Source: Bacteroidota bacterium (GTDB taxonomy: Bacteria; Bacteroidota; Bacteroidia; Flavobacteriales_F; PHOS-HE28). From it: a stretch of 62,520 nt of DNA. The first letter of the stretch is position 1. Each line of letters begins with the position of its first letter. The notes under the pieces are model-generated. The model did no database searches. It was not told the origin of the DNA and was given only the letters and a program-made list of their open reading frames with translations. Below are positions 46,866 through 62,520 of the stretch, in pieces. Location: the NCBI GenBank assembly GCA_018267055.1, contig JAFDZF010000015.1, positions 1-62,520 of the forward strand. Reading direction: 5' to 3'. Both the position numbers and the translations under genes were made by a program.

Positions 46866-49064
46866 CTATCGCACGAGCCGACAGGACCGGAGGGTGCCGT
46901 CCGCGATCAGTCGCAGGGTATAGGCGCCGCGGGCGATGGGACCCAGCGTGAACCGCTCGCGGTGCAGGCCCGGCATGCGTGCGGCCTGCACCACCAGCGT
47001 CCGCACCGTCCGGCCTTGCAGGTCCAGCAGCTCCAGCGTCACCGGCCCGGCCGTGCGCGTGGCGTACTCCACGGTCAGCTGATCGTCCATGGGGTTGGGC
47101 GAACAGCGCAGGCCGTCATCGGTGTCCGGGGTGGCGATGCCCGTGGTGACGTCGGGCGCGCAGGAAATGGTGATCTCCCATCCCGGAAAGGGGTTGAACT
47201 CCGGTCCATCGGTCAGGAAGGAGAGGGTGAGCGCGCCGGAAGCCGCCGTGGAGGTGATCGGGCCGGGGATGGCATCGCCCGTGAAACTGCCCAGGAGGGC
47301 TGCGGTGGTGTCCGCACCGTCGTAGACGCGGAGGAAGTCGCCGCCGGGCTCCACGCTGAACGCCTGGAAGGTGAGTGTCACTTTGTTGCCCGTCAGGTCC
47401 GGGTAATAGGTCTCCAGCGTGTTGACGTACGAGATGTAGGGATCGCCGGGACCTCCGCTGTCGTACACCTCATTGCCGCAGGTGGTGGCCGGGGGCGTGA
47501 ACTCCCGGACGTAGACCACGTTGTTCGACCAGGGGGCCGGGCAGGTGGAACGCACGCGTACCTGGTAGATGTGCCCGGCCCACAGTCCGCTGAGCGGATA
47601 GGTGGTGGACGTGATGGTGGTCCAGTCGATCATGACCTGGCTGTCGTCCAGGACCTGGATCTCCCACTGGGTGATCGACGGGTCGTTCTCGTGGAAGGCG
47701 ACCACGGCGGAGTACGGCGTGAGGTCCGTGATCCGCAGGCTGTCGATGGAGGGGGAGCAGGAATGGACACAGTCGCTTCCCAGGCAGGGGGCGGCGTCGA
47801 TGCGCTGCTGCATGCGCTCCGTGGGCTGCGGGCCGAAGCCGAGCGTCAGGTCGATGCCGCAATAGCTCATGATGGTGCCGTGGCCGATCGGCAGGATCGG
47901 GTTCTGGCTGTCGTAGCAGGCGATGTTCTCCAGGTAGCCGAACGGGTCGCTGTGGCCGCAGTCGTCGATCTGCGTGTTGTTGCCGTTCCACACGCAGGCA
48001 TGGGTGTGGTGCGAGCCGCACACATGCCCGATCTCGTGGGTGATGGTCGTCACCATGGCGGAATAGCCGGGCACTTCCTCGAACACGAGCACGGGCGAGG
48101 TCTCGTACGCCCCTGCGGCGCAGAGGCCGCCGACGCCGCGCGCGAACCCCGAGCCGAACTGGCTGGAGATGAAGTTCGCTATGTCGCCGTTGAACGCGGA
48201 GCGGTATTCCGCGAACCGGTCCACGTCGAACTGGTCGCCTTGGTGCATGAAGGCCTCCGGCCCGGTCCATACGAACACCTCGCTCAGCGACACTTGGATG
48301 CCGTCGTTCGCGAACAGCGTGGCCACGTTGTTGTGCGCCGCGGTGATCCAGTTCGTGCTTTGGGCCACGTCCGAGCCGTTCAGCTGGTAGGTGTCATAGG
48401 CCAGCTCGTAGTACAGGCGCACGCAATTGGTCGTGCGTTCCGTGCCGCCTCGGAGGTGGTCCCCCACGGGGGCGGGCACATCGGTCGTGCCGCAGCTCAG
48501 GGTATGCGGCACCAGCAGGTCCCGGTCGCTGTAGACGATGTGGTGGGCGGCGCTGCGGCCCAGCATCCGTTGCACCACCACATTGCCCAGCGTGCTGGAG
48601 GAGACCATGCCGATCACCTGGTCCGCGAAGAAGCTGAACGCGGCGATGGACGTGGGGTCGTCCGCGACGATGCCGCGGTAGTAAGCGCCCGGCACGTAGC
48701 CTTGGCGTACCCCTGCGTTCGTCCGCACCGTGAACCCTTCGGCGAACGGGTCCACCCGGTAGAGCATCAGCGGGAGCGGGCCGCCGGCGGACGGCACATC
48801 GAAACGGATGAAGGCGGGCCGCTCCTGGAGCACGGCGGCCAGCGCTTCCGGCTCCGCATCGGCGAGGACGGCCTCGGCCACCACGCGACGGAACGGGGCG
48901 TCGGGTGGAACAGGGACCGTGTGCAGGAGGTGCACGGCGTCCGGCACGGCGCCGGTGTCCCGCAGGCGCTGCACCTCAGCGGCGATGGGGCGTAGGTCCG
49001 TGGCGAAGCCGGTCGCGGGCAGGGAGCACACGAGGCCGGTGAACAGTAAGATGGTCGGGCGCAT
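46866..49064 (-). CDS. T9SS-exported metzincin (reprolysin-like) protease
   Basis: A 732-residue secreted zinc protease. Signal peptide (1-20), a long propeptide-like segment (to about 205), then a metzincin catalytic domain with HEIGHVCGSHH (zinc ligands His343, His347, His353; base Glu344) and Met-turn IMSYC (Met399). Next a fibronectin III-like domain (about 430-510), a CUB domain (about 520-630; VYDSGGPGDPY, FLRVYDGADTT, GWEITISC) and a type A T9SS sorting domain (about 650-732; CSPNPMDDQLTVEY, LLDLQGRTVR). ATG 49064 starts the signal peptide. It would be secreted or surface-attached and degrade proteins outside the cell. Confidence 0.93.
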   Translation of the reverse strand: MRPTILLFTGLVCSLPATGFATDLRPIAAEVQRLRDTGAVPDAVHLLHTVPVPPDAPFRRVVAEAVLADAEPEALAAVLQERPAFIRFDVPSAGGPLPLMLYRVDPFAEGFTVRTNAGVRQGYVPGAYYRGIVADDPTSIAAFSFFADQVIGMVSSSTLGNVVVQRMLGRSAAHHIVYSDRDLLVPHTLSCGTTDVPAPVGDHLRGGTERTTNCVRLYYELAYDTYQLNGSDVAQSTNWITAAHNNVATLFANDGIQVSLSEVFVWTGPEAFMHQGDQFDVDRFAEYRSAFNGDIANFISSQFGSGFARGVGGLCAAGAYETSPVLVFEEVPGYSAMVTTITHEIGHVCGSHHTHACVWNGNNTQIDDCGHSDPFGYLENIACYDSQNPILPIGHGTIMSYCGIDLTLGFGPQPTERMQQRIDAAPCLGSDCVHSCSPSIDSLRITDLTPYSAVVAFHENDPSITQWEIQVLDDSQVMIDWTTITSTTYPLSGLWAGHIYQVRVRSTCPAPWSNNVVYVREFTPPATTCGNEVYDSGGPGDPYISYVNTLETYYPDLTGNKVTLTFQAFSVEPGGDFLRVYDGADTTAALLGSFTGDAIPGPITSTAASGALTLSFLTDGPEFNPFPGWEITISCAPDVTTGIATPDTDDGLRCSPNPMDDQLTVEYATRTAGPVTLELLDLQGRTVRTLVVQAARMPGLHRERFTLGPIARGAYTLRLIADGTLRSCRLVR

Positions 49065-49174
49065 GGGCAGGGTGGATGGGGCTTGTCCTATCGACGAGGG
49101 ACCAACGGGGAAGGGTTGTATGGCGGGGCGATCGTGCTTCGAGCGGACATGCGTTCCCGCGGCCCGGAGCGTTA

Positions 49175-49199: not shown

Positions 49200-50102
49200 A
49201 TGTACTATCGTGCCATGCTCCGGGCCTCCTTCGCCCTGCTCGTCGGGCTCGCCCATGCGGCGGTGCCGGCCCAGGACCTCGCGCGCTTCCGGACCGGAAC
49301 GCCCGAGGGCTATGTGGAGGGGCGCACCACGGAGCGGGCGGCGGCTTCCGTGGATCCTGCCAAGACCTATCACTGGATCAAGGGGCAGGACCTGCACGTG
49401 ACGCAGGGCGGCTACAGCGGGCGCCTGCTGCATGGGCAATGCACGGTCTTCCATCCCGGTGGGCAGCTGCGTGCGCAGGGGCGTTACGACAAGGGCGTGA
49501 AGGACGGCGCCTGGTACACCTGGCAGGCGAACGGCACCCTGGTCTCGGTGGAGCAGTGGCGGAAGGGACGCCTGCATGGGCGGTCGCTTTTCTACGACCC
49601 GTCCGGCGTGCCGACGCGGGCGGAGGTCTACCGCAACGGTGTGCTTAAGCGAATGCAAGAGGTGGATGCTTCCGGCAAGGAGAAGAAGGTCCGGAAGACC
49701 AAGGAGAAGGGTGAGAGGAAGGGAGGGCGGCGGCCCGGGGTCGGGAAGAAAGGGGAACGGGGGGACAAGGCCCCGCCGCCGCCGCATCCTGAAGAGGGAA
49801 CACCCGAGCAGCACGTGCGTACCCACGCAGCCCCTGCGGACACCGCGGGGCGGACGGGTGCCGGTGCGCCGGAGGGGGAGCGCGCCAAAGGCGCCAAGGC
49901 GAAGCGGGAGAAGAAGCCCGCCGTGAAGGACCGGGGCACGAAGGAGGTGAAGAAGGACGCGTCGAAGGATGGCCGGGGAGCAAGACCGGCCCAGCAGGAG
50001 CGACCCGCGGGAAAGAAGAAGAAAGCAGCCGAAGCGAAGGCGAAGCGGCCGGCGAAGAAGAAGCAACATGCGCCCGCGGAGCCTCCGGCCACAGCACCCT
50101 GA
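49200..50102 (+). CDS. MORN-repeat (YwqK-like) protein with charged tail
   Basis: A 300-residue exported protein. A signal peptide is evident (MLRASFALLVGLAHA, beginning at ATG 49215; ATG 49200 is four codons up and equally possible). Residues about 65-150 hold three MORN-type repeats (GQCTVFHPGGQLRAQGRYDKG, in short pieces; DGAWYTWQANG, HGRSLFYDPSG). The last 140 residues are a low-complexity Lys/Glu/Ala/Pro-rich tail (KKVRKTKEKGERKGG and similar). It is first of the plus operon, 6 bp before the beta-helix protein gene. No link to secretion machines is known to me; co-transcription suggests one. Confidence 0.75.
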   Translation: MYYRAMLRASFALLVGLAHAAVPAQDLARFRTGTPEGYVEGRTTERAAASVDPAKTYHWIKGQDLHVTQGGYSGRLLHGQCTVFHPGGQLRAQGRYDKGVKDGAWYTWQANGTLVSVEQWRKGRLHGRSLFYDPSGVPTRAEVYRNGVLKRMQEVDASGKEKKVRKTKEKGERKGGRRPGVGKKGERGDKAPPPPHPEEGTPEQHVRTHAAPADTAGRTGAGAPEGERAKGAKAKREKKPAVKDRGTKEVKKDASKDGRGARPAQQERPAGKKKKAAEAKAKRPAKKKQHAPAEPPATAP

Positions 50103-50108
50103 GCCGCC

Positions 50109-51359
50109 ATGCTGCGCGCCTCCGCCTTGTTCTATGCCGTGACGGTGGCGCTGCTGGTCGGCATGATCACCAGCGCCCTGATCCTGTTGGTGCATTTCCG
50201 CAACGTGGAGACCGAGCGCTGGCTGGCAGGACAGCGTGCCCTGGCCAATGCGCGCTCCGCCATCCGCCTCGCGGCCGCGAGCGGGGATCCGCGGACCACG
50301 GAGCATGCCTTCGACCTCTTCGGCAACGGCGAGGACAGCGTGCTCCTGCGCATGCGCCCGTATGGCCTGCTCGACCACGTGGCCGCGCGTGCCCGGATCG
50401 CCGATCACTGGGCCGTGGAAAGCGCCTTCGCCGGGGGACGCGACGCCGACGCCCGCGTGCTCGTGCTCGGCCGTGGCGACCTGTCCGCCGTCCACCTTTG
50501 CGGTGATGCCCGTGTGCTGGGTGATGCCGCGGTGCCCAATGCCGACGTGCGGCGCGGCTACATCGAGAGCCGCCCGTTCACCGGTGAGCGGTTGGTGGAA
50601 GGGGCGCTGCGGGCCAGCGAAGGGAACGTGTCCTTGTCCGACCCGGCGATGCTGCAACGCATCGCGGCGAACTGCCATCGCCTGGCCGCCGGGGACCAAC
50701 GGCCGGTCGCGTGGGAACGGGCCGCCGTGCCGGACAGCACGGTCGACCCCTTCGCGCCCTTCCCGCTGGTCGAGCTCACCGGCATCCGCGAGCTGGACGG
50801 CCTGTCGTTCAGCGGTCCCTTGATCCTCCGTTCGGCGGACACATTGGTGCTCGGGCCCGGGCTGCGGCTCGACATGGTCATCGTGCAGGCGCCCTTCATC
50901 ACCGTCGCCGCGGAGGCCATGCTCGTCGTGCAGTGCTTCGCGGACCAGGGCATCCACGTGGAGCAAGGGGCGAAGCTGCTCTATCCATCGGCCCTGGTGG
51001 TGATGACCGACGGTCGGGGCGGCAATGCTTCCGTGACCATCGATGCCGATGCGGTGATCGAGGGTGCGGTGGTGGCCTGCATGGACCCGGGGGACCGGAA
51101 GGGCACGGCCCTCATCACCACCCGTCCGGGCACCTTGGTGCGGGGCGAGGTCTTCTCGGACGGCCTGCTCGAGCACCGCGGTGTCCTCAAGGGCACGGCC
51201 GCGGCAGGTGCGCTGATCCTTCACACGGCTTCTTCGACGTACCGGGGTTACCTGCTCGATGGCGTGCTGGCCCGGCCGGACCCGGGCATCAGCATCGGGG
51301 CATTGGCCACCGGCGACCGCCGACACAAGGACGTGCTCCGATGGATGCCGCCCGCATGA
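50109..51359 (+). CDS. membrane-anchored beta-helix-like protein of the pseudopilus operon
   Basis: A 416-residue protein with one N-terminal membrane helix (about 8-30, FYAVTVALLVGMITSALILLV) followed by a large exported region. Residues about 250-400 show short regular strands with Gly turns (LILRSADTLVLGPGL, IHVEQGAKLLY, VTIDADAVIEGAVV, GTLVRGEVFSDGLLEHRGVLKG), resembling a bactofilin-like or beta-helix fold. The placement and topology recall PilX/GspK minor pilins, but there is no prepilin cleavage motif. Its stop overlaps the next start (ATGA). Confidence 0.75.
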   Translation: MLRASALFYAVTVALLVGMITSALILLVHFRNVETERWLAGQRALANARSAIRLAAASGDPRTTEHAFDLFGNGEDSVLLRMRPYGLLDHVAARARIADHWAVESAFAGGRDADARVLVLGRGDLSAVHLCGDARVLGDAAVPNADVRRGYIESRPFTGERLVEGALRASEGNVSLSDPAMLQRIAANCHRLAAGDQRPVAWERAAVPDSTVDPFAPFPLVELTGIRELDGLSFSGPLILRSADTLVLGPGLRLDMVIVQAPFITVAAEAMLVVQCFADQGIHVEQGAKLLYPSALVVMTDGRGGNASVTIDADAVIEGAVVACMDPGDRKGTALITTRPGTLVRGEVFSDGLLEHRGVLKGTAAAGALILHTASSTYRGYLLDGVLARPDPGISIGALATGDRRHKDVLRWMPPA

Positions 51360-51697
51360 ACGCACGGAAGGGATACCTGCAGGCGGCCACGCTGCTGGAG
51401 AGCGTCCTGGCGATGGGGCTGCTTGCGGCCGTGATGTCGCTGGCCGTGCTCATGCATGCCCGGACGCTGGCTTCCGGGCGGGCCTATGCGCGCATGCAGG
51501 CCTGGTCCGCATCGGAGGCGGCCCTGGCAGCGATCGCCGAAGGGGCCCCGCTCGACCGCACCTGGGAGGCTCCGCCCGGGATGACGCTCACCGCGGAGGA
51601 TGCGGTGATCGCTCCGGGCGTGCGGACCGTGCACCTGACCTGCACGAACGGCGCCGGCACCGTGCTCGACCGCCGCATCATCCTGCCTGCCCGATGA
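51356..51697 (+). CDS. minor pseudopilin-like protein
   Basis: A 113-residue protein with an N-terminal pilin-like signature: short basic leader MNARKGYLQA, then ATLLESVLAMGLLAAVMSLAV, with Glu at the +5 position of the mature protein if cleaved before the second Ala. The hydrophobic helix continues into a small globular domain with a C-terminal strand pair. It resembles GspI/PilV-type minor pilins. It overlaps the genes on both sides by 4 bp, so expression is coupled. Confidence 0.7.
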   Translation: MNARKGYLQAATLLESVLAMGLLAAVMSLAVLMHARTLASGRAYARMQAWSASEAALAAIAEGAPLDRTWEAPPGMTLTAEDAVIAPGVRTVHLTCTNGAGTVLDRRIILPAR

Positions 51698-52188
51698 GCC
51701 GCCTGCCCGCGTTCACCCTGTTCGAGGTCCTGATCTCGATGCTGCTCGTCGCCCTCCTGGGCACCCTGGCCGTGTTCACGCTGGGTGGTCCGTTGCGGAA
51801 CCTTACCGATGCGGACGGGACCGCGCAGCAACAGCTGGCCGTCCTCCTGTCGGCCCAGCGCGCGCAGCAGGACCTGGAGGATGCCGCCACCATCACGGCC
51901 GCTTCCGGTGGTGCGGTCGTCCTGGAGGGGGACCGGAGCCATATCCGTTACGAACAGCACGGCGATACCCTGGTGCGCATCGCCATGGACGGCACGAGCG
52001 CCCAGCTGATGCTCCGGTCCATGGCGACGAAAGAGGTCGCTGGGGTGCCGGGGTTGATCGCCACCTGGTCGTGGCAGATCGGCGATCCCGCCGAGGCCGG
52101 ACCGCTGGTCTTCCGCAAGGAGTATGATGCACGGACCGTCCTCCGCTACCTGATCGATCATGGCCATTCCGATCCGTACCATCCCTGA
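51694..52188 (+). CDS. minor pseudopilin-like protein (GspJ/PilW type)
   Basis: A 164-residue protein with a clear prepilin leader: MSRLPA then FTLFEVLISMLLVALLGTLAV, cleavage after Ala6 and Glu at +5. The globular part is beta-rich (HIRYEQHGDTLVRIAMDG). It overlaps the preceding gene by 4 bp and the GspF gene by 29 bp. Within a T2SS-like set it would sit at the pseudopilus tip; the exact homology (GspH, I or J) is uncertain. Confidence 0.8.
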   Translation: MSRLPAFTLFEVLISMLLVALLGTLAVFTLGGPLRNLTDADGTAQQQLAVLLSAQRAQQDLEDAATITAASGGAVVLEGDRSHIRYEQHGDTLVRIAMDGTSAQLMLRSMATKEVAGVPGLIATWSWQIGDPAEAGPLVFRKEYDARTVLRYLIDHGHSDPYHP

Positions 52189-53299
52189 GCGCCCGGCCTC
52201 GGCAGGCGCCGCGGATCCAGGCCGGTCCGCGGTGCGGTCGTTCGGCGTGTTCAAGCATCGCCTGGACCGCGGCCTGGACGACGTGCGCAAGGAGCGCCTC
52301 TTCCGGGAGCTGGCCCTGCTGCTGCGTTCGGGCGTGGACCCGCGCACCGTGCTCGAGCTGTTGGAGCGCGGCCAGCGCGAAGGCCCCGCGCGGACGGTGA
52401 TCGCGGTCGTGCGGGGAGAAGTGGTCCGGGGCAGTTCCTTGAGCGAGGCGATGGCGAAAGCATCCGCCTTCACGGCCTATGAACGCTACAGCGTCCGCAT
52501 CGGTGAGGAGAGCGGCCGCCTGTCCGACGTGTTCGAGGAGCTGGCCGATCATCATGCGGACCGCATCGCCATCCGCCGCATGCTGCGCCAGGCCTTCGCC
52601 TACCCGGTGTTCGTGCTGTGCATCACCACCGCCGTCATCGCGTTCATGATGAACGTTATCGTCCCCATGTTCGCCCAGGTGTTCGCCCGCTCGGGCGCGG
52701 AGCTGCCGGCGGTCACGCGTGCCATCCTGCGCCTTTCGGGGCTGTTCCGCACCGGCTGGCCCTGGCTGCTCCTGGGCGTGGCGGCCGTGGTGGGAGGCAT
52801 CGTCCTGCTCAAGCGCGATGATCGCTTCAAGGGCAGGCTGGAACGCGTGATCTGGAAGATCCCCGTCCTGGGGCCCTTGCAGCGGAAGACCCGGCTGGCG
52901 CGCTTCTGCCGGTCCATGGCCTTCCTGCTCAGCTCCGGCGCCCCGCTGGACCGCGCCCTGCAGCTCAGTGAGCACATGTCGGGCTCCGTCCGGCTGGAAC
53001 GTGCGCTCGAACGGGTCCGTGAGCAGGTGGTGCGTGGTGCCTCACTGGGGCAGGCCCTGGCGCAGCATCCGGAGTTCGAGCCGTCCATGGTGGCCATGGT
53101 GGGCGTGGCCGAGGAAGTGAAGCAGCTCGACCGCATGTTCCTCCGGCTGGCGGAACGCTACACGGCCGATGTGAAGCACCGCACCGCCCTGCTGGGCAGC
53201 GTGCTGGAGCCCGCGATGATCCTCCTCATCGCCGTGCTCGTGGGCATCGTGCTCGTGGCGATGTACCTGCCGATGTTCAAGCTCAGCACGACGTTCTAG
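52160..53299 (+). CDS. gspF: GspF/PilC-type inner-membrane platform protein
   Basis: A 379-residue polytopic protein at the centre of type II/IV pilus-like machines. It contains two GspF repeats (about 45-165 and 250-370), each with the family pattern: FRELALLLRSGVDPRTVLELLE and MAFLLSSGAPLDRALQLSE, then GEESGRLSDVFEEL and GVAEEVKQLDRMF. Three or four membrane helices are visible. It would couple the GspE ATPase to pilin insertion. Last gene of the plus operon; it ends 5 bp from the end of the convergent minus operon. Confidence 0.93.
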   Translation: MAIPIRTIPERPASAGAADPGRSAVRSFGVFKHRLDRGLDDVRKERLFRELALLLRSGVDPRTVLELLERGQREGPARTVIAVVRGEVVRGSSLSEAMAKASAFTAYERYSVRIGEESGRLSDVFEELADHHADRIAIRRMLRQAFAYPVFVLCITTAVIAFMMNVIVPMFAQVFARSGAELPAVTRAILRLSGLFRTGWPWLLLGVAAVVGGIVLLKRDDRFKGRLERVIWKIPVLGPLQRKTRLARFCRSMAFLLSSGAPLDRALQLSEHMSGSVRLERALERVREQVVRGASLGQALAQHPEFEPSMVAMVGVAEEVKQLDRMFLRLAERYTADVKHRTALLGSVLEPAMILLIAVLVGIVLVAMYLPMFKLSTTF

Positions 53300-53304
53300 C
53301 CGGA

Positions 53305-53805
53305 TTAGCGCCGCGCGAACACGCGCTCCTCGCCGCTCCAGCGGAGCACGATGCTGTCAGCGCTCATGCGCACCACGCCCAGCCCGTTGCTCTCGTTCCC
53401 CTGCTTGATCAGCAGGTCGCGGCCCTCCACCGACAGGAAGGCCACGGTGGTGGACGGGTCGCCCTTCGCCCGCATGGTCCCTTTGTAGGTCACCTTCGGC
53501 CAGGCGCGCGTCGGTGGGGGAGGCGGTGGCGGTACGGGGGGGGCTTTCCGGGAAGAAGCCGGTGGCGTGGTGGCCGTGGGATGTTGAACGGCCACGGCGC
53601 GGTCGTCCAGGAAGGGGTCGCGCGGGAACGCCGGAATGGCATCCGCGGTATCGCCGGACGTGGCCGCAGGCGGGGAAGGTGCCGTGGGCCGGTCCACCAG
53701 GCCTTCTGCGTCGGATCCCGGCCGGTGCAGCGCGCGGGCGATCACCGCGCCCCAGACCCCCAGGACCAGGACGCCGAGCCCGATGCGCAGCCACCGCTTG
53801 CTCAT
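53305..53805 (-). CDS. GspC/PilP-like inner-membrane protein
   Basis: A 166-residue protein with one N-terminal helix (about 6-24), a Pro-rich disordered linker (RKAPPVPPPPPPPTR) and a C-terminal beta-rich domain of about 65 residues (VTYKGTMRAKGDPSTTVAFLSVEGRDLLIKQG, in pieces; GEERVFARR). This layout matches GspC homology-region or PilP proteins, which link the inner-membrane complex to the secretin. Identity is by topology and context, not a clear motif. Last gene of the minus operon; its ATG overlaps the previous stop. Confidence 0.65.
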   Translation of the reverse strand: MSKRWLRIGLGVLVLGVWGAVIARALHRPGSDAEGLVDRPTAPSPPAATSGDTADAIPAFPRDPFLDDRAVAVQHPTATTPPASSRKAPPVPPPPPPPTRAWPKVTYKGTMRAKGDPSTTVAFLSVEGRDLLIKQGNESNGLGVVRMSADSIVLRWSGEERVFARR

Positions 53806-54722
53806 GGCTGGACGGTGAGCGTGCGCGGCGTGGCGCCCGTGCCATTGCCTGCCGCGTCCGTGCTGCGCACATACCAGTGGAAGGTCCCCGGGCCGAGCGA
53901 GTCGGTATGGGTCGTCCCGGTCGGGGCCAGGGCGCGGATCGTCACCGTGTTCACGTCGGTCACGAACAAACTGTCCACCAAGGCGCCGGTGTCCGTGCCG
54001 CTCTGCCACTGGAAGGTGAGCGTGGTGTTCGGGATCGTCGCGTTGGCCGCGGGCGTCACGAGCAGGGGGGCGGTGGGCGCCGTGCGATCGATGCGGAAGG
54101 TCCGGTAGCTGAAGAGCGAGGAGGACGTGCTGTTGTGCCCTTGCACGCCCCAGGCGTAAATGCCTTCGGTGAGCCCGGTCATCGACATCTGCGTGGTGGC
54201 GGTGATCTGGGCCTGCACCAGGGCGCCGGTGGGGTCGTTGTTCCGGAGCTCGAAGCGGTAGTCGTCCGCGCCGGCCAGGGCTTGCCAATGGAACGTCACC
54301 GGCTCCGCGGCCGTCACCGCATTGGCCGCCGGGGCGGTGAGCACGGGGAGCAGGTCGTCCAGCGAGGAGGCGGGGACCACCGTCAATGCGCGCTGGTAAT
54401 AGTTCGTGGCGCTGTTCCCGTTGCGCGCCTGCACGCGCCAGACGTAGCTGCCCGGCTGGAGCGGGAACTGGATGCCGGCATTGGCGAACACCGTGTCGGC
54501 CACGAACTGTACCGGCTGGTCGAAGTTCGGCCGTGCGATCTGCAGGTGGTATTCGGTCGCATGCGGCACCGCCTCCCACTTGAAGGTCACCACGTTGCTG
54601 TTCGTCTCGTAGCCGTCGGCCGGGGTGAGCAGCACCACGCCGAAGCCGCTGAGGTCCGTCTCGATGATGTCGGAGCAGGCCGCGAGGGCCAGGCAGGGCA
54701 GGAGCAGGATCCGTGTTCTCAT
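53802..54722 (-). CDS. lipoprotein with fibronectin III-like repeats inside the secretion operon
   Basis: A 306-residue lipoprotein (signal ending LALAAC, Cys16). Three related beta-sandwich modules follow (about 30-110, 115-205, 210-306), each with a W-x-x-hydrophobic pattern: VTFKWEAVPHATEYHLQIA, VTFHWQALAGADDYRFEL and LTFQWQSGTDTG. Fn3/Ig-like modules of this kind are common in surface proteins. It is embedded by 4-bp overlaps between the GspM/PilO-like and GspC/PilP-like genes, so it is likely a component: a pilotin substitute, a secretin collar or a surface adhesin. Confidence 0.75.
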   Translation of the reverse strand: MRTRILLLPCLALAACSDIIETDLSGFGVVLLTPADGYETNSNVVTFKWEAVPHATEYHLQIARPNFDQPVQFVADTVFANAGIQFPLQPGSYVWRVQARNGNSATNYYQRALTVVPASSLDDLLPVLTAPAANAVTAAEPVTFHWQALAGADDYRFELRNNDPTGALVQAQITATTQMSMTGLTEGIYAWGVQGHNSTSSSLFSYRTFRIDRTAPTAPLLVTPAANATIPNTTLTFQWQSGTDTGALVDSLFVTDVNTVTIRALAPTGTTHTDSLGPGTFHWYVRSTDAAGNGTGATPRTLTVQP

Positions 54723-55267
54723 GGCGCGATGGTGCGTAGGTAGAGCGTTGCGTGCAGCCGGCGGGCAGCGCCGCCGGGCGTTCCGAAGGCGGTGGGGCGC
54801 GTGGTGTGTAGGTCCAGGGAGACCAAGTGCACGCCGGTGGTCCCGCGTTCCAGGCGGTCGCAGAAGCGGAGGAGCGTCCCGGTGCGTCCCTCCAGCACCA
54901 CCGGCAGCGTGTGGATGGTGCGTTCCCCCGTCACCTGCAGGTGCTCCGGCGAAAGGGCGATGAGCTTCGGGGCATCGGGACCGCCCGACCCGATGGAGCC
55001 GATCACGGCGCGCCAACGGTCCTCCGCGGGGCCGTCGCCACCGGAGCGTGCGGTGATCTCCGCCAGGCGGGCCTCCAGCCGCTGCCGTTCGGCCTCCAGG
55101 TCCACGCCGGCCCGCTGGTCCGCTTCCAGCCGTCGGCACTCCTGCCAGAGCGACCAGGTGGGCAGCACGCGCTTGCGCATCACGAGCAGGAGCAGCACGG
55201 CCGATCCAGCGGTCAGCAGCAACAGCCGCCGGCGATAGCTCATCCGGGTGGAAGCCGCCTGCTTCAT
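54719..55267 (-). CDS. GspM/PilO-like assembly protein
   Basis: A 182-residue bitopic protein: short cytoplasmic basic tail, one helix (about 14-30, RLLLLTAGSAVLLLLVM), a coiled-coil segment (about 40-75, ECRRLEADQRAGVDLEAERQRLEARL) and a small ferredoxin-like domain (HTLPVVLEGRTGTLLRFCDRLE). This is the typical layout of PilO/GspM, which dimerises with the partner encoded just upstream. Overlaps both neighbours by 4 bp. Confidence 0.75.
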   Translation of the reverse strand: MKQAASTRMSYRRRLLLLTAGSAVLLLLVMRKRVLPTWSLWQECRRLEADQRAGVDLEAERQRLEARLAEITARSGGDGPAEDRWRAVIGSIGSGGPDAPKLIALSPEHLQVTGERTIHTLPVVLEGRTGTLLRFCDRLERGTTGVHLVSLDLHTTRPTAFGTPGGAARRLHATLYLRTIAP

Positions 55268-56463
55268 GGCGCCAGTTCCAGTTCGAACCGCGGTGTGGCG
55301 GTCTCCGGGTCGATCGAGTAGCCGAGCAACTTCACCGTCGAGAGGCCTGCGGTGCCCTTCAGGATCGACATCCAGGCGTCCAACACCCCGGCGTCGCGGC
55401 AGGTGCCGCTCACGCGTACGATGCCGCGTTCGGTGGTCAGGGGTTCGCGCTCCTTCAGCGGGCCGCGCAGGGGATGTTCCACCAGCCGGTCCAGGCGGAT
55501 CCCGGAGGGGGCGGTGGCGGCCACCCGGGCCGCCTGCAAGGCCAGCCCGTCGCTGCGGCCCAGTCCCAGCTCTTCACCGATGCCCTCCATGGCCCGCACG
55601 TTCGCGCGGAGCGCTTCCAGGGCTTCCCGGTCGCGCGCCTGGGTCGAGGCGGAGCTTTTCAGGGTGGACCGCGACCGTGCGAGCTGGTGCACGATGGCCC
55701 GTTCGCCGCCGATCACCAGCACGAAGAGCATGGCCGCGATGAGCAGCCCGCGTTCATAGCGGTGGCGCGCCCGCTCTTCCCGCTGTGCGGCCACCACCTC
55801 GGGCAGCGGGGTGTCCTGCCGCTCCGCCGTGGGCACCAGGTGCGCCCAGGCGCCGGCGAAGGCGAGGGCATGGCGATCCTCGATCCGGTCCGCGTCCAGC
55901 TGGAGGCTGCGTCCTTCCGCCGCGCGCGTCGTGACGTGCGTGGCGAGCCCGCCGTCCGCGAAGGTGAAGGTGTGCCCGGCGGCCGACCAGGTCCCTGCGT
56001 CCTCGCCCAACAGGGTGCGCAAGCCCAGCAGGGCCCAAGGGCCGATCGACACGCGCACGACGCGGAACCCCAGCGCGTGGAAGCGGGCGATGACCTCGGC
56101 CACCGCGCTTCGCCGCGCCATGCTGAGGCCGGTGGCGGGGCCGGCCTTCCACACCGAGGTGCAGAGCTCGTCCAGGGCCGCGTTCGGGAATGCCTGCCGC
56201 AGCAGCTCGTCCGGCTCGCCGGTGCGTTGCAGCACCCGGTGCACGCAGCGGTCGGTGTCCATCGTCAGCGCCACGGGGATGCGCGTGCCATAGGTGGCGG
56301 CCAATCCGGCGACGTCGGCGGCCTCCCCCTGGGCGCGCACGTGCACGCCGTCCTTGCGGCGGTGCAGGTGCACATGGGTGAGCGTGATGGCCTCCGCGGT
56401 GACGGCATGCACGGCCACGCCGATCACCTCGCCCGGGCCCACGATGATGCCTCCGCGCTCCAT
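55264..56463 (-). CDS. GspL-like (PilM-PilN fusion-like) assembly protein
   Basis: A 399-residue bitopic protein. The first 230 residues are cytoplasmic with an actin-like flavour (MERGGIIVGPGEVIGVAVHA; LGFRVVRVSIGPWALLGLRTLLG), then one helix (about 255-272, RGLLIAAMLFVLVIGG), a short coiled coil and a periplasmic ferredoxin-like domain (about 330-399). The same order as GspL of T2SS, which equals PilM plus PilN joined. It would recruit the ATPase. ATG 56463 is 2 bp after the secretin stop; the longer frame upstream is antisense-like. Confidence 0.72.
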   Translation of the reverse strand: MERGGIIVGPGEVIGVAVHAVTAEAITLTHVHLHRRKDGVHVRAQGEAADVAGLAATYGTRIPVALTMDTDRCVHRVLQRTGEPDELLRQAFPNAALDELCTSVWKAGPATGLSMARRSAVAEVIARFHALGFRVVRVSIGPWALLGLRTLLGEDAGTWSAAGHTFTFADGGLATHVTTRAAEGRSLQLDADRIEDRHALAFAGAWAHLVPTAERQDTPLPEVVAAQREERARHRYERGLLIAAMLFVLVIGGERAIVHQLARSRSTLKSSASTQARDREALEALRANVRAMEGIGEELGLGRSDGLALQAARVAATAPSGIRLDRLVEHPLRGPLKEREPLTTERGIVRVSGTCRDAGVLDAWMSILKGTAGLSTVKLLGYSIDPETATPRFELELAP

Positions 56464-56465
56464 GC

Positions 56466-58358
56466 TCAGTAGATGATGGTGGGGCGGATGAAGATGGTCA
56501 GCTTGGTCTTCCGCGTGGTGGCGGAGCGCGAGCCGAAGAACCACTTCAGCACCGGGATGCGCGAGAGGAAGGGGATGCCGCTGCCGCTGCGGTTGTTCTC
56601 CTTCTCCTCCAGGCCGCCCAGCACGATCATGTCGCGGTCGCGCGCCCGGACGATGGAACTGAACTTGCGCTCCACCGAGCCCGGCGGTGCCGTCTGCGAG
56701 ATCCGTGTGGTGAAGTTGCTCTGGTTCACCTCGACCTCCAGCGTCACCATGTCCTCGCTCGATACGATGGGCTTGATCTTCAGCGACAGGTCGGCGTTCA
56801 CCGGCTTGTAGGTCTGCGAGGTGGTCACCGTGGGGTTCTGCGTGCCGATGAGGTCGTTGCGCACCTCCAGGTAGTACTCCGTCTGCCCGATGCTCAGCGT
56901 GGCCTCATGGCCGTTCAGCGTGGAGAGCTGCGGGGTGGACCGGAGCTTCAGCATGCCGTCCGTCTCCAGCGCCTGCAGGCTCAGGTAGAACCCGGGCGCC
57001 ACATTGCCCAGGTTGAACACCCCGAAGCCATTGAAGCTGTTGATGAGGTCGTTCAGCGTGGTGCTGTTCATGTTGTAGTCGATCCCGGGCAGGACCGTCC
57101 CACCGCTGCGTGCCGGCCCGCTGCCCAGGCCCGCCTTCAGCCCGGTGGTGAGCGTACGGTTGCGGTTCACGTCCACGATCATCACCTCGATCATCACCAG
57201 CGGCACCACCTGGTCGATCTTCCGGAGGAATTCGCCGATCTCGCGGATGCGCAGCTCATCGCCGCTCAGCACGAACGCGTTCAGCTCCATGAACTCCGCG
57301 ATCGTCACGTCCTTCCGGATGCCGTCGGGGATGATCGGGAGCACGTCCTTCACCGGCCGGTTCTGCAGCCGCACCATCTCCGTGCGCCGCAGGCCCTCGA
57401 AGTCGCGTTTGCCCACCAGGTAAACGCCTTCGCGCACGGAATACGTGTAGGCGGTGCCGCGCAGGAGGTGGGCCAGCAGCTCCTCGTAGGTGGCCTGTTC
57501 CAGGTGCAGCGTGGCCGTCGCCGCCACCGCGTCATAGAGGAAGAACTCCTTGCCCAGCGCGGCCGAGGCCTCGCGGATCACCTGGTCGGTCGGCACGTCG
57601 CGGGCATCCACCATCAGCCAGCGCCCGTCGCGCACCTGCAGGTCCAGGACGCCGCCCGTGACGCTCGCGGAGGCGGTCCCCTTGGCATTGCTGCCGGTGC
57701 TTTTCGGGGCCTCCACGACGGTGTTGCGCAGCAGGAAGGTCCCGTCCTTGGTGCGCTCCACCGCCAGGCCGTTGGCGAAGGCCAGCTTGTCCAGGGCGTT
57801 CGGGAGGAGGCTGTGGGTCAGGAAAAGCGAGACGGCCTTGTCCTCCAGGCCGGGCGCCAGCACCACATTGGCCCCGCTCGTGCGGTTGATGGCGCGGGCC
57901 ACTGCTTCCAGCGTATCGCGCCGGAGGTCCAGGTCGATCCAGCCGCTGTCGGCATCGTAGGCCACGGTCATCTGCCGCACGGGTGGTGGTGCCGCCGGTG
58001 GAGGAGGGGGTGCGGCATAGGGCCTCAGGGAGATGATGCTGCCGATCAGCTCCACGTCCAGGTCGTAGTTCTTGCACAGATAGAGCAGCACATCGAGCAC
58101 CCGCGCGTTGCTGAAGTTGTTCACGACCTCGCCCTTCACGGCCGGGTCCACGGTGAGGTTCAGCTGGTGGCTCACGCCCAGCGCCCGCACGAACTCGGTC
58201 ACGGGCGTGCCGCTCACGCTCAGCTCCACGGTGCCGTCCAGGCCGGGATGGTCCACCACGGCCGCTTCCAGCCGGTCCGCCAGGGCGGTGAAGCGGCCCT
58301 GGGCCACCGCGAACAGCACGAGGCACCAACCGGCCAGAAGGAGGGTCAAGCGCTTCAT
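56466..58358 (-). CDS. gspD: GspD/PilQ-type outer-membrane secretin
   Basis: A 630-residue exported protein forming the outer-membrane channel. Signal peptide ends FAVAQ (no lipobox). N-terminal domains (about 40-390) include a STN-type module (SHQLNLTVDPAVKGEVVNNF in part), a Pro-rich linker (YAAPPPPPAAPPP) and further N modules (RLQNRPVKDVLPIIP, ELRIREIGEFLRKID). The secretin core (about 400-630) has VPLVMIEVMIVDVNRNR, LRSTPQLSTLNGHEA and the closing MIVLGGLEEKE...GIPFLSRIPVLKWFFG. No C-terminal S-domain is seen, so a separate pilotin may be needed. Confidence 0.93.
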   Translation of the reverse strand: MKRLTLLLAGWCLVLFAVAQGRFTALADRLEAAVVDHPGLDGTVELSVSGTPVTEFVRALGVSHQLNLTVDPAVKGEVVNNFSNARVLDVLLYLCKNYDLDVELIGSIISLRPYAAPPPPPAAPPPVRQMTVAYDADSGWIDLDLRRDTLEAVARAINRTSGANVVLAPGLEDKAVSLFLTHSLLPNALDKLAFANGLAVERTKDGTFLLRNTVVEAPKSTGSNAKGTASASVTGGVLDLQVRDGRWLMVDARDVPTDQVIREASAALGKEFFLYDAVAATATLHLEQATYEELLAHLLRGTAYTYSVREGVYLVGKRDFEGLRRTEMVRLQNRPVKDVLPIIPDGIRKDVTIAEFMELNAFVLSGDELRIREIGEFLRKIDQVVPLVMIEVMIVDVNRNRTLTTGLKAGLGSGPARSGGTVLPGIDYNMNSTTLNDLINSFNGFGVFNLGNVAPGFYLSLQALETDGMLKLRSTPQLSTLNGHEATLSIGQTEYYLEVRNDLIGTQNPTVTTSQTYKPVNADLSLKIKPIVSSEDMVTLEVEVNQSNFTTRISQTAPPGSVERKFSSIVRARDRDMIVLGGLEEKENNRSGSGIPFLSRIPVLKWFFGSRSATTRKTKLTIFIRPTIIY

Positions 58359-58360
58359 CG

Positions 58361-59782
58361 TCAGTGGCCGGTCAGCATCGGGTATACTTCCTCCAGGCTC
58401 GTGCGGCCGCTGTGCAGCAGCTCGAAGGCCCGCCCGGCCAGCGTGCGGATGCCTTTCCGTGCGAGCACCTCGCGCGCATCGTGCAGGCCGTTGCGCAAGT
58501 GTTCCGTCAGTTCGTGGTCGAGGGCGATCACCTCGTACACCGCGTGCCGGCCCCGGTAGCCGGTGAAGTGGCAGTCGGCGCAGCCCACGGCCGCCCAGTG
58601 CTGCTCGATCGGGCCCGGCAGGGTGGTGGCGAGCGTGCCCTCCGTCCAGGGCATGGCCTGCTTGCATGCGGGGCAGAGCAGCCGCACCAGGCGTTGGGCC
58701 ACGCTGGTGTTCAAGGTGGCGGCGATGAGGAAGGGCGGCACGCCCATGTCCATCAGGCGCGACACCGTGCCCCAGGCCGAGTTCGTATGGATGGTGCTCA
58801 GCACGAGATGGCCCGTCAGCGCCGCGCGGATCGCCATCTGCGCGGTCTCCGCGTCGCGCACCTCGCCCAGCATGATCACATCGGGGTCCTGGCGCAGGAA
58901 GGTGCGCAGCGCCTGCGCGAACGTGAGGCCGATCGCCTCGCGCAGCTGCACCTGGTTGATGCCTTCGAGCGTGTATTCGATCGGGTCCTCCACGGTCACC
59001 ACGTTGCGCTTCACCTCGTTCAGCCGTTTCAGCGTGGCGTAGAGCGTGGTGGTCTTGCCCGAGCCCGTGGGTCCGCTGATGAGCACGATGCCGTGCGGCC
59101 GGCGGATGCCGTCCAGGTAGTCCGTCAGCTGGCGTTCGTCCATGCCGAGCTGCTCGATGCGGAGCTCGCCGGCGTCCTGTCCCAGGAGGCGCAGCACCAC
59201 CTTCTCGCCATGGAGCGTGGGCAGGATGGACACGCGGATGTCCGAGCGTTGGCCGTCGCGGTCCAGCACCATCCGCCCGTCCTGCGGCAGCCGCTTCTCC
59301 GAGATGTCCAGCCCGGCGGTCACCTTCACGCGGTTCACCAGGCCGGGGTGGTCCGCCTTGTCGTAGCGGTAGCGCTCCACCAGCAGCCCGTCGATGCGAA
59401 TGCGCACGCGGGCGGTCTTGTCGAAGACCTCGATGTGGATGTCGCTGCTGCCCAGGCTCCGTGCCTCCTGCACCAGGTCCTGTAGCACGTGTTCCGCCGA
59501 GCGCTCGGACAGGTCCACGCGTTTGCTCGGCCGCCCCGTGCGGCGGTAGTGCGTGCTCAGTGCGCGCTCGATCGCCTGCGGCGCCATCGGCTCCAGCTCC
59601 ACGTCCACGCCCAGCAGCACCTCCAGTTCCGACCGCAGGGCCTCGTCCGGTCCCGTGGCGCTGTAGAGCACGTAGCGCCCGTCGGTGGAGGCCTTCGGCA
59701 CCACGCGGTAGTGCCAGGCCTGGTCGGTGGTGATCAGGTTGCGCAGCTCCACGGGGAGCTCCGGGAGCAGGGGCTCAGCCAT
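58361..59782 (-). CDS. gspE: GspE/PilB-type assembly ATPase
   Basis: A 473-residue hexameric cytoplasmic ATPase powering pseudopilus extension. Walker A GPTGSGKT (237-244), Asp box VEDPIEY (264-270), Walker B DVIMLGEVRD (301-310), the His box STIHTN and the zinc-binding tetracysteine (Cys370, 373, 401, 404). The N-terminal domain is shorter than in PilB, closer to GspE. No second ATPase of the PilT retraction type is in the window. ATG 59782 overlaps the prepilin peptidase stop by 8 bp. Confidence 0.95.
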   Translation of the reverse strand: MAEPLLPELPVELRNLITTDQAWHYRVVPKASTDGRYVLYSATGPDEALRSELEVLLGVDVELEPMAPQAIERALSTHYRRTGRPSKRVDLSERSAEHVLQDLVQEARSLGSSDIHIEVFDKTARVRIRIDGLLVERYRYDKADHPGLVNRVKVTAGLDISEKRLPQDGRMVLDRDGQRSDIRVSILPTLHGEKVVLRLLGQDAGELRIEQLGMDERQLTDYLDGIRRPHGIVLISGPTGSGKTTTLYATLKRLNEVKRNVVTVEDPIEYTLEGINQVQLREAIGLTFAQALRTFLRQDPDVIMLGEVRDAETAQMAIRAALTGHLVLSTIHTNSAWGTVSRLMDMGVPPFLIAATLNTSVAQRLVRLLCPACKQAMPWTEGTLATTLPGPIEQHWAAVGCADCHFTGYRGRHAVYEVIALDHELTEHLRNGLHDAREVLARKGIRTLAGRAFELLHSGRTSLEEVYPMLTGH

Positions 59783-60299
59783 GGGCCGGCAGGTTGGTGG
59801 CGATGCCGTCGTGGTACAGCGCGTCCACGTGGCCGCTCAGGTGCGCCAGCATCCAGATGCCCAGGTAGATGGCCAGGAAGCCGGCCAGCGGCACCGACCG
59901 CACGGTACGGGGCGCCCAGCGCACCAGCAGCAGGTAGGCCGGGATGCAGAGCACGAGGCCGCTCAGGTAGAACACCAGGAAGCTCCAGCGCGAGAGGCCC
60001 GTGGCCAGCACCGCCAGGAAGAGCAGGTCGCCCAAGCCCACCCACCGGTCCACCGGGTTCTCCCAGCGGCGGTGGCGCAGCATCACCAGCCCCACCGCCA
60101 CGGTGAACTGCACCGCCAGGAACGCAAGGTTGAAGCCCGTGTCGGCGTACCAGGCCCCCCTCGGCCGGCCCAGGAAGGCGGGCACCGCCAGGCAGAGGAA
60201 GAGCCCCGGCAGGAGCGACCAATGGATGGCCCGGTGCCGGAGGTCCTCCCACGCGATCACGCCGAGCAGCAGGACCGTGAGGATCTTGATCGCGACCAT
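59775..60299 (-). CDS. short (CpaA/TadV-like) prepilin peptidase
   Basis: A 174-residue aspartic membrane protease. The two catalytic Asp are Asp19 in IAWEDLRHR and Asp91 in VGLGDLLFL (GxGD motif). About five helices. It lacks the N-terminal cytoplasmic methyltransferase domain of PilD/GspO, so mature pilins may not be N-methylated by it. It lies 3 bp after the pilin gene, and its substrates are probably the three prepilins of the locus, all with Ala before the cut. Confidence 0.85.
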   Translation of the reverse strand: MVAIKILTVLLLGVIAWEDLRHRAIHWSLLPGLFLCLAVPAFLGRPRGAWYADTGFNLAFLAVQFTVAVGLVMLRHRRWENPVDRWVGLGDLLFLAVLATGLSRWSFLVFYLSGLVLCIPAYLLLVRWAPRTVRSVPLAGFLAIYLGIWMLAHLSGHVDALYHDGIATNLPAHG

Positions 60300-60302
60300 G
60301 GC

Positions 60303-60722
60303 TCAGTCGGGTACCACTTCCTTCAGCATCTTCTGGTGGTCGATCTCCCAGAGGTTGAACTGCCCGTCCTGGTCGAAATCCACCACCGCCGTCGCCCGCG
60401 CCGAGAACGCATTGGGGCCGGCGCTCACCACCTCCACCTTGTAGTTGGCGTTGCCTCCCTCGGTCACCAGCTTCTGCTGCTGGAACCCCAGCTCCTGCAG
60501 GTCGGCGCTGTAGCTGGAGCGCTGGTAGAAGCGGGTGGTCTCCAGCGAATAGAGGTGCTCGAGCTGGAGCTTGGCCTCCGTGGCCTTCGCATTGGAGATC
60601 ACCTGGCTGTAATCGGGCAGGGCCAGGTACACGAGGATACCCACGATCACCAGGGCGATGAGGAGCTCGGTGAGCGTGAAGGCGCGCAGGCGCTCCGGGG
60701 ATGGGGTGGGGGCGGGGACCAT
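60303..60722 (-). CDS. major prepilin (GspG/PilA-like)
   Basis: A 139-residue type IV pilin-like protein, first in the minus operon. The leader MVPAPTPSPERLRA is followed by FTLTELLIALVIVGILVYLALPDY; cleavage after Ala14 leaves Phe at +1 and Glu at +5. The globular domain ends with a canonical EF-hand-like loop DFDQDGQFNLWE (115-126), a likely calcium site as in other pseudopilins. Its size and first position suggest the major subunit. ATG 60722 lies 8 bp from a TATCTTG box. Confidence 0.9.
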   Translation of the reverse strand: MVPAPTPSPERLRAFTLTELLIALVIVGILVYLALPDYSQVISNAKATEAKLQLEHLYSLETTRFYQRSSYSADLQELGFQQQKLVTEGGNANYKVEVVSAGPNAFSARATAVVDFDQDGQFNLWEIDHQKMLKEVVPD

Positions 60723-61079: not shown

Positions 61080-61553
61080 GTGACCACCACACGCGCACGC
61101 AGATCAGGGCTCCCTCCGCTGAACGCCCGGTTCATCCTCGCCATGGAAGGACTGGGGCATACTGGATACACCTTCAGCAAAGAGCTGGAGACGTCCGAGG
61201 CGGTGATCTCCAACATCCGCAAGGGCAAGAACCCTCCGAACGTCCAGCTGATCGAGCGGATGCTCAATAAGTATGAAGACCTGGACCCCCAATGGCTCAT
61301 GACGGGGCAGGGCCGCATGTTCCGTTCCCGCCCCGAACCCGGGGAGGAAGGGACCCGCGCCGAGGCGCTGACCATCCTCCGTCACCTGGACGAGCGCGTG
61401 CAGAAGCTCGAGCACCTGGTGCAGCGGTCCATCAAGAACCAGGTGGAGCGGAACGCGCTGGTGGACGAAGCCTTCAACGGCCTGCAGCAGCAGCTGGCGC
61501 AGCTCGAGCGCAACGTCACCAAGTTCACGAAAGGCCCTCGGAGAACTGCGTGA
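61080..61553 (+). CDS. helix-turn-helix (phage-repressor-like) regulator
   Basis: A 157-residue DNA-binding protein. Residues about 15-75 form an HTH_3/CI-type domain of a form common in Bacteroidota (NARFILAMEGLGHTGYTFSK, AVISNIRKGKNPPN, LDPQWLMTGQG). The second half is a predicted coiled coil (ILRHLDERVQKLEHLVQRSI; LQQQLAQLERNV), so it likely dimerises or oligomerises. GTG 61080 is preceded by an AGGA-type site. Divergent from the secretion operon, it is a candidate regulator of it. Its 3' end overlaps the convergent next gene by 29 bp. Confidence 0.8.
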   Translation: MTTTRARRSGLPPLNARFILAMEGLGHTGYTFSKELETSEAVISNIRKGKNPPNVQLIERMLNKYEDLDPQWLMTGQGRMFRSRPEPGEEGTRAEALTILRHLDERVQKLEHLVQRSIKNQVERNALVDEAFNGLQQQLAQLERNVTKFTKGPRRTA

Positions 61554-62091: not shown

Positions 62092-62520
62092 TCAGTGTTT
62101 GAGGATGAATTCACCGGAATCCTGGAGGTCGTCGAGTTCGATGAGGTATCTGTAGACGCCATTGTCCTGGAGGTCGCCGGAGTTCATGTAGCGTCCGTTC
62201 CAGGCCTGGTCGGGGTCGGTGGTCTGGAAGAGGATGTTGTCCATTCGGTCGAGGACGGTGAACTGGAAGGCCGCCACCGGGATGTTGAGCAGAACGTGGA
62301 GGACGTCGTGGTCGCTGTCGCCGTCGGGGGTGAGGAAGAGCCCGTCCTGGAGGTCGAGGAGGTATTGGGGGCGGATGGTGGTGTCGGTGGCTTCCTCGGC
62401 ACCGAAGAGGAAGGCAAGCTCGTTGAGGTCTTGCAGGACGTAGGTGGATGAGTCGACCTGGTAGGTGGTGTCGTTCACCAGCAGGCGAACGTTCGCTATG
62501 CCGCCATCGGCGAGCTCGAA
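62092..62520 (-). CDS. C-terminal part of a T9SS type B-like secreted protein, 5' truncated
   Basis: Only the last 142 codons are in the window; the frame is open to the right edge, so the protein is longer. The C-terminal 85 residues resemble the gliding-motility-associated (type B) sorting domain: GLFLTPDGDSDHDVLHV, FTVLDRMDNILFQTTDP, WNGRYMNSGDLQDNGVYRYLI and a final EFILKH. The typical Asn of FTPNGD is Asp here. The upstream part (NVRLLVNDTTYQVDSS) is probably a repeat module. It would be exported through T9SS; function is unknown. Confidence 0.65.
   Translation of the reverse strand, partial: FELADGGIANVRLLVNDTTYQVDSSTYVLQDLNELAFLFGAEEATDTTIRPQYLLDLQDGLFLTPDGDSDHDVLHVLLNIPVAAFQFTVLDRMDNILFQTTDPDQAWNGRYMNSGDLQDNGVYRYLIELDDLQDSGEFILKH

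What the first reader, a model, noticed from the sequence alone, without database searches (positions are those of the whole stretch)
49200..60722. A complete T2SS/T4P-like machine in two convergent operons of a T9SS-bearing Bacteroidota
Seen: GspE ATPase with Walker boxes and tetracysteine, GspD secretin, GspF platform, short prepilin peptidase, three prepilin-like proteins, and bitopic GspL-, GspM- and GspC-like proteins, with mostly 2-8 bp gaps or 4-bp overlaps. Known: Bacteroidota mainly use T9SS, and T2SS-like loci are rare; I recall one studied in Cytophaga hutchinsonii but cannot verify similarity here. Inference: with no PilT and a GspL-type fusion, this is a secretion or pseudopilus system rather than a twitching pilus. 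The non-canonical members (MORN protein, beta-helix protein, Fn3 lipoprotein) make it a candidate lineage-specific variant.
Basis: partly seen in the sequence, partly recalled or inferred. Interest (0 to 1): 0.78.

Follow-up and report, generated by a model that had tools for sequence, protein, structure and literature searches.

The report
Bacteroidota T2SS-like secretion machine
This is a complete, intact copy of a little-studied protein-export machine of Bacteroidota, built like a type II secretion system but apparently evolved from type IV pili; comparing about 100 copies shows that three 'odd' genes are core parts of it and that it usually travels with genes for giant RHS-type proteins, which are now its best candidate cargo.

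Summary
In detail: 13 intact genes in two convergent operons (49200-60722). The machine is not a lineage-specific novelty. It is a new member of the known Bacteroidota 'T2SS' of Cytophaga hutchinsonii, which published phylogenies place with T4aP rather than with true T2SS; my ATPase tree agrees. New here: (1) the 'non-canonical' genes are core. The Fn3 lipoprotein directly precedes C in 84 of 86 loci that have C; MORN and beta-helix genes recur across genera. (2) The beta-helix protein is predicted to be a giant minor pilin (56-residue pilin-like helix, sheet, beta-solenoid). Its top PDB match is ComZ, the Thermus pilus-tip pilin, so it probably fills the GspK position at the tip. (3) The GspL fusion is supported by structure prediction, and no retraction ATPase was found in 31 genomes carrying the system. 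(4) The secretin has three repeated STN-type domains, unlike GspD. (5) A module with an OmpH/Skp-like chaperone and giant RHS proteins co-occurs with the system (31/35 genomes with it, 25/162 without) and is often nearby, making it the best cargo candidate. Cargo was not tested experimentally. One F. psychrophilum paper reported neighbouring toxin-like genes; I found no class-wide report.

The parts
60303..60722 (-). G: major pseudopilin, prepilin signal RA^FTLTELL (Ala at -1)
   Evidence: PF07963 E 1.6e-5; conserved in the other loci
59775..60299 (-). O: short prepilin peptidase (A24 domain only, GLGD motif), 174 aa
   Evidence: PF01478 E 3e-4, below gathering; GxGD in 71 of 82 homologues
58361..59782 (-). 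E: assembly/secretion ATPase, Walker A and two CxxC pairs
   Evidence: PF00437 E 1.4e-125; tree; motifs
56466..58358 (-). D: outer-membrane secretin with three STN-type repeats, one N1-type domain and the secretin domain
   Evidence: PF00263 E 9e-38; internal repeats by hhalign
55264..56463 (-). L: GspL-type fusion (actin-like cytoplasmic domain, TM helix, ferredoxin-like periplasmic domain)
   Evidence: AlphaFold model pLDDT 89; GspL Foldseek E 8e-8; XcpY periplasmic Z 11.5, rmsd 1.9 over 78; PilM Z 12.2
54719..55267 (-). M: GspM/PilO-like bitopic protein
   Evidence: profile match to PilO E 4e-4; TIGR04412 E 0.03
53802..54722 (-). Fn3 lipoprotein: lipobox Cys16 and three Fn3-type domains; core component of the class-wide system
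   Evidence: invariant Cys; position
53305..53805 (-). C: GspC/PilP-like bitopic protein with invariant DPF motif, no lipobox, no room for a PDZ domain
   Evidence: NF041515 GspC_delta E 5e-7; alignment
52160..53299 (+). F: inner-membrane platform protein
   Evidence: PF00482 E 1.3e-48; TIGR02120 E 2e-74, below cut-off
51694..52188 (+). PJ: minor pseudopilin (GspJ/ComGF/GspH-like N-terminus)
   Evidence: PF07963 E 0.004; weak ComGF and GspH matches
51356..51697 (+). PX: minor pseudopilin (ComGE-like N-terminus)
   Evidence: NF041013 E 0.008; conserved position
50109..51359 (+). BH: predicted giant minor pseudopilin, long pilin-like helix, sheet and beta-solenoid; proposed tip subunit in the GspK position
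   Evidence: AlphaFold pLDDT 87, pTM 0.87; ComZ (6qvi) top PDB match, Foldseek E 3.9e-4, Z 12.5 over 214 residues
49200..50102 (+). MORN: exported MORN_2-repeat protein with Lys/Glu-rich tail
   Evidence: PF07661 E 3e-7; found with BH-PX-PJ-F in most loci that have that module
61080..61553 (+). HTH protein divergent from G (357 bp between them); candidate regulator, not part of the machine
   Evidence: in all 6 congeners with the system, in 1 of 33 without it

Best explanation
A Bacteroidota-type T2SS-like secretion machine. Inferred working: E, bound to L and F, hydrolyses ATP to push a short pseudopilus of G through the periplasm. O trims the prepilins. L, M and C form the inner-membrane platform and C links it to the secretin D. 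PX, PJ and the giant solenoid pilin BH form the tip and contact cargo. The Fn3 lipoprotein sits with the secretin at the outer membrane. With no PilT, the filament is not actively retracted and works as a piston that delivers folded periplasmic proteins to the cell surface. The leading cargo candidates are the RHS-type giants (about 2100 and 2400-3000 aa) encoded by the linked module; in this genome that module is on contig C121. Shown: gene content, predicted folds of L and BH, ATPase clade, lack of PilT, class-wide conservation, module association. Inferred: filament dynamics, secretion, tip role, Fn3 location, cargo identity.
For: 13-gene set conserved over many genera. GspL fold with both GspL domains; GspC_delta match. 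One assembly ATPase over cut-off in 30 of 31 genomes with the system and none in the last, so no PilT. ComZ-like tip pilin. Mutants of D, F and G in C. hutchinsonii alter outer-membrane proteins and cellulose use but not gliding (PMC5553014). RHS module: 31/35 genomes with the system against 25/162 without; same contig within 32 kb in 16 of 28 against 0.85 expected. The module encodes an OmpH/Skp chaperone. No T9SS sorting domain was found on the RHS proteins scanned. An independent report in F. psychrophilum describes a split T2S locus whose ~35-kb cluster also carries ABC-toxin-like genes (PMC5808330).
Against: No substrate has been shown for any Bacteroidota member in the papers read. In C. 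hutchinsonii the extracellular protein profile hardly changed in the mutants. The RHS proteins also occur in genomes where the system was not found, and a few genomes with the system lack them. The association is not corrected for ancestry or genome size. The nearest fold of BH, ComZ, is a DNA receptor.
Confidence: 0.72

Rival explanations
1. A non-retracting or passively retracting surface pilus for adhesion, with BH as a tip adhesin.
For: ATPase groups with T4aP PilB (PMC6668835); M matches PilO; C. hutchinsonii mutants adhere less to cellulose (PMC5553014); BH carries a solenoid head.
Against: GspL-type fusion instead of separate PilM and PilN; no PilT; adhesion loss in C. hutchinsonii was partial.
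Confidence: 0.15
2. A DNA-uptake (competence) pseudopilus with BH as a ComZ-like DNA receptor.
For: ComZ is the top fold match and is a DNA receptor (PMC6561018); Gram-positive competence pseudopili can work without PilT (own knowledge); ComEC is present in all 31 genomes tested with the system.
Against: ComEC is equally present in all 8 congeners tested without the system. F. johnsoniae, which has the system (PMC5553014 Table 2), was not transformable in the laboratory (PMC7965970). The linked module encodes exported giant proteins, not DNA-processing genes.
Confidence: 0.08
3. A secretin complex mainly involved in forming outer-membrane tubes or vesicles.
For: Secretin-like particles sit at the tips of about 70% of outer-membrane tubes in F. 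johnsoniae (PMC8455137).
Against: A full ATPase, platform and pseudopilus set is conserved with D; the authors suggest the tubes may simply dispense of the secretin.
Confidence: 0.05

Closest known systems
Putative T2SS of Cytophaga hutchinsonii (CHU_3191-3202) and its relatives in F. johnsoniae (Fjoh_0611-0622), Pedobacter heparinus, Odoribacter splanchnicus and F. psychrophilum
   Same: Same components; published gene numbers fit the same G-O-E-D-L-M-x-C and F-minor-pilin blocks, with one unassigned gene between M and C in each of the first four, where the Fn3 lipoprotein lies here (PMC5553014 Table 2).
   Different: The papers read do not describe the Fn3, MORN or solenoid-pilin genes as core components. 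The blocks are convergent here. Sequence identity to C. hutchinsonii itself was not measured.
Proteobacterial T2SS (Gsp, Eps, Xcp, Pul)
   Same: Secretin, ATPase, platform, GspL-type fusion, GspC-like and GspM-like proteins, pseudopilins, no PilT.
   Different: ATPase in another clade, different secretin N-terminus, single-domain peptidase, no clear GspH to GspK homologues by sequence, extra Fn3, MORN and solenoid-pilin subunits.
Type IVa pilus
   Same: ATPase groups with PilB; M matches PilO.
   Different: No PilT, fused L in place of PilM and PilN, C without a lipobox.
ComZ of the Thermus thermophilus competence pilus
   Same: Predicted overall plan of BH: pilin domain with a large beta-solenoid.
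   Different: No sequence kinship detected; DNA binding untested.

Membership tests
Bacteroidota (Cytophaga-type) T2SS-like system | Block G-O-E-D-L-M-x-C with F and minor pilins | tested here: met
   published gene numbers in PMC5553014
Bacteroidota (Cytophaga-type) T2SS-like system | ATPase in the Bacteroidota clade | tested here: met
   clade support 100/99; C. hutchinsonii itself not in the tree
Bacteroidota (Cytophaga-type) T2SS-like system | Role in protein export to the surface | not testable with these tools
   needs mutants and proteomics
Canonical T2SS | GspE-clade ATPase | tested here: not met
   branch 96/98 separates the T2SS GspE references from Bacteroidota plus PilB/HofB (small reference set); agrees with PMC6668835
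Canonical T2SS | GspL fusion of actin-like and ferredoxin-like domains | tested here: met
Canonical T2SS | Secretin N0-N1-N2-N3 arrangement | tested here: not met
   three STN-type repeats (S2 and S3 hhalign E 8e-7, S1 and S2 E 4e-4) and one N1-type domain; sequence profiles only, no structure
Canonical T2SS | Minor pseudopilins H, I, J, K | tested here: inconclusive
   PX and PJ weakly I/J-like; BH a pilin by predicted fold only, no profile match to E. coli GspK
Canonical T2SS | Prepilin peptidase with N-terminal methylase domain | tested here: not met
   174 aa, A24 domain only; similar lengths in most relatives
Type IVa pilus | Retraction ATPase PilT | tested here: not met
   one PF00437 ATPase over cut-off in 30 of 31 genomes, none in the remaining one
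Type IVa pilus | Separate PilM and PilN, lipoprotein PilP | tested here: not met
   fused L; C has no lipobox Cys
Type IVa pilus | PilB-clade ATPase | tested here: met
   92/88 with PilB and HofB, small reference set
ComZ-type tip pilin | Pilin helix plus beta-solenoid | tested here: met
   (predicted structure)
ComZ-type tip pilin | DNA binding | not testable with these tools
   needs a binding assay

The most novel reading that the evidence does not exclude
Bacteroidota evolved, from T4aP and separately from the Proteobacterial T2SS, a secretion machine with a giant solenoid tip pilin and an Fn3 lipoprotein on its secretin, whose main cargo is a linked set of folded RHS giants, giving these bacteria a second outer-membrane route beside T9SS. 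The Fn3 lipoprotein would explain the extracellular density seen on the F. johnsoniae secretin-like complex, and the three STN domains its three periplasmic densities.
Probability: 0.3. Interest if true: 0.75.

Novelty: new member of a known kind. Interest (0 to 1): 0.52.

Why it matters
The Bacteroidota 'T2SS' has mutants but no known cargo and an incomplete parts list. The comparison here supplies a 13-gene core, a candidate tip subunit, a candidate secretin partner and testable cargo. It also gives a way to test the published suggestion (PMC6668835) that this is a secretion system derived from T4aP independently of the T2SS.

Tried and rejected
Single-sequence hhalign of the C, M, L and BH alignments against E. 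coli GspC, GspM, GspL and GspK gave nothing, because a single sequence has no profile power. An Fn3 alignment was too divergent for the genome-contig scan. ComEC presence does not separate genomes with and without the system. The idea that the C-terminus of the RHS giants is a system-specific secretion signal was dropped: it also occurs, sometimes as a separate gene, in genomes where the system was not found. A first clustering of flanking genes ('GIANT') mixed unrelated PKD and T9SS proteins and is not used as evidence. An Fn3 search across the phylum outside the class gave only what look like generic Fn3 matches in longer proteins. Whether the cluster was gained or lost in the genus was not resolved.
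Full report
OBSERVATION. The 13 genes exist and are intact. Minus strand, 60722 to 53305: G, O, E, D, L, M, Fn3 lipoprotein, C. Plus strand, 49200 to 53299: MORN, BH (beta-helix), PX, PJ, F. The operons converge with 5 bp between their stop codons. Profile searches support E, D, F, G and PJ, weakly O and PX, C through GspC_delta, and M through PilO.

GENOME. The window is a whole contig of a draft genome (3.86 Mb, 203 contigs, 99.5% complete) with one PF00437 ATPase over cut-off and a T9SS marker. The cluster is patchy in its genus: 4 of 33 genomes in the first sample, and two more among less complete genomes. In the class, 31 of 197 genomes carry a GspL homologue, and the secretin search and a profile re-search added a few more.

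CONSERVATION. Profiles grown from the window proteins were run over 31 loci plus the window and then 97 non-redundant loci. The order G-O-E-D-L-M-Fn3-C is nearly constant. Fn3 directly precedes C in 84 of 86 loci with C; the other two also have Fn3, but their gene order is disturbed by an over-long predicted frame or by rearrangement. MORN-BH-PX-PJ-F is a second module, placed downstream, upstream or convergent. Named carriers include Hymenobacter, Adhaeribacter, Salibacter, Acidiluteibacter, Owenweeksia, Marinifilum and Sediminibacterium; ATPase homologues lie on plasmids of Persicobacter, Flavobacterium jumunjinense and Pontibacter. In C. hutchinsonii, F. johnsoniae, P. heparinus and O. splanchnicus the published gene numbers leave exactly one unassigned gene between M and C (PMC5553014 Table 2); by position that should be the Fn3 gene (inference). 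So the 'non-canonical' genes are core, not lineage-specific.

STRUCTURES. BH (21-sequence alignment) gave pLDDT 87 and pTM 0.87: a 56-residue N-terminal helix, an antiparallel sheet and a beta-solenoid. Its first PDB match is ComZ of T. thermophilus. Ice-binding solenoids score almost as high in the structural alignment, so the solenoid alone is not specific; the long hydrophobic helix and sheet in front of it and the position beside PX and PJ make the pilin reading likely. ComZ is argued to sit at the pilus tip (PMC6561018). L gave pLDDT 89 with both halves of GspL. The secretin has three related STN-type segments; F. johnsoniae secretin-like particles show three periplasmic densities and an extracellular density not seen in the Legionella T2SS (PMC8455137). 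Linking these to the STN repeats and to Fn3 is my inference.

T2SS OR PILUS? In a 36-sequence ATPase tree the window falls in a Bacteroidota clade (100/99) that groups with PilB and HofB (92/88), with the T2SS GspE references outside (96/98). The reference set is small, but the result agrees with PMC6668835, which places the Bacteroidetes 'T2SS' with T4aP. Of 31 genomes with the system, 30 have exactly one PF00437 ATPase over cut-off; the other (G173) has none, and the locus fetched from it lacks E and D and comes from a short contig. The parts list is therefore T2SS-like while the ancestry looks T4aP-like.

CARGO LEAD. In congeners G005, G027 and G224 a module of roughly 20 kb lies between the HTH gene and G: a large exported protein (FG-GAP/PKD type in G027), an OmpH/Skp-like chaperone (in G005, PF03938 E 7e-23), a lipoprotein of about 200 aa, an RHS-type protein of about 2100 aa ('RHSN'; weak DUF6531 and SpvB matches), a protein of about 170-250 aa, and a protein of 2400-2900 aa (RHS_repeat and DUF6443 in G027). 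RHSN relatives occur in 28 of 31 genomes with the system and 28 of 166 others (Fisher 3e-15; genus level 3e-9). After the profile re-search the figures are 31/35 against 25/162; only 61 of the genomes without a first hit were searched again. On the same contig, RHSN lies within 32 kb of the system in 16 of 28 genomes against 0.85 expected. The window's own genome keeps RHSN and its giant partner on contig C121. No T9SS sorting domain was found on the RHS proteins scanned. A paper on F. psychrophilum had noted a T2S locus in two opposed parts within a ~35-kb cluster that also holds genes with ABC-toxin-like domains (PMC5808330). I found no class-wide report in two literature searches, which cover open-licence papers only. 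Limits: no correction for ancestry or genome size, and linkage to a machine does not prove transport by it.

VERDICT. Identity as a Bacteroidota T2SS-like system is near certain. A secretory function is likely (about 0.7). RHS proteins as cargo are plausible (about 0.4). The window locus is a new member of a known kind; the interest lies in the completed parts list and the cargo lead.

Noticed in passing
window 61080-61553: HTH protein next to G is present in all 6 congeners with the system and 1 of 33 without (that one 69% complete); it lies 25-32 kb away from G in three relatives.
   Followed up: partly
window 60303-60722 and homologues: Prepilin position -1 is Ala rather than Gly in most members (G: 57 Ala to 16 Gly; PJ: 34 Ala, 13 Gly, 10 Ser), beside a single-domain peptidase.
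   Followed up: partly
L192 (G000 contig C121) 451-16189: The window genome's own RHS giants (2075 aa and about 3000 aa) are on another contig; in three relatives this module lies between the HTH gene and G.
   Followed up: partly
window 49200-50102: MORN protein carries a long Lys/Glu-rich tail; similar charged tails occur in the other homologues printed.
   Followed up: no
window 46866-49100 (-) and 62092-62520 (-): Flanking T9SS-type proteins: a reprolysin-like metalloprotease with CUB, fn3 and a weak Por_Secre_tail match, and a CHU_C-tailed protein cut by the contig end.
   Followed up: no
L158 (Persicobacter plasmid): ATPases of this type occur on plasmids of Persicobacter (two), Flavobacterium jumunjinense and Pontibacter, so the system may be mobile.
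   Followed up: no
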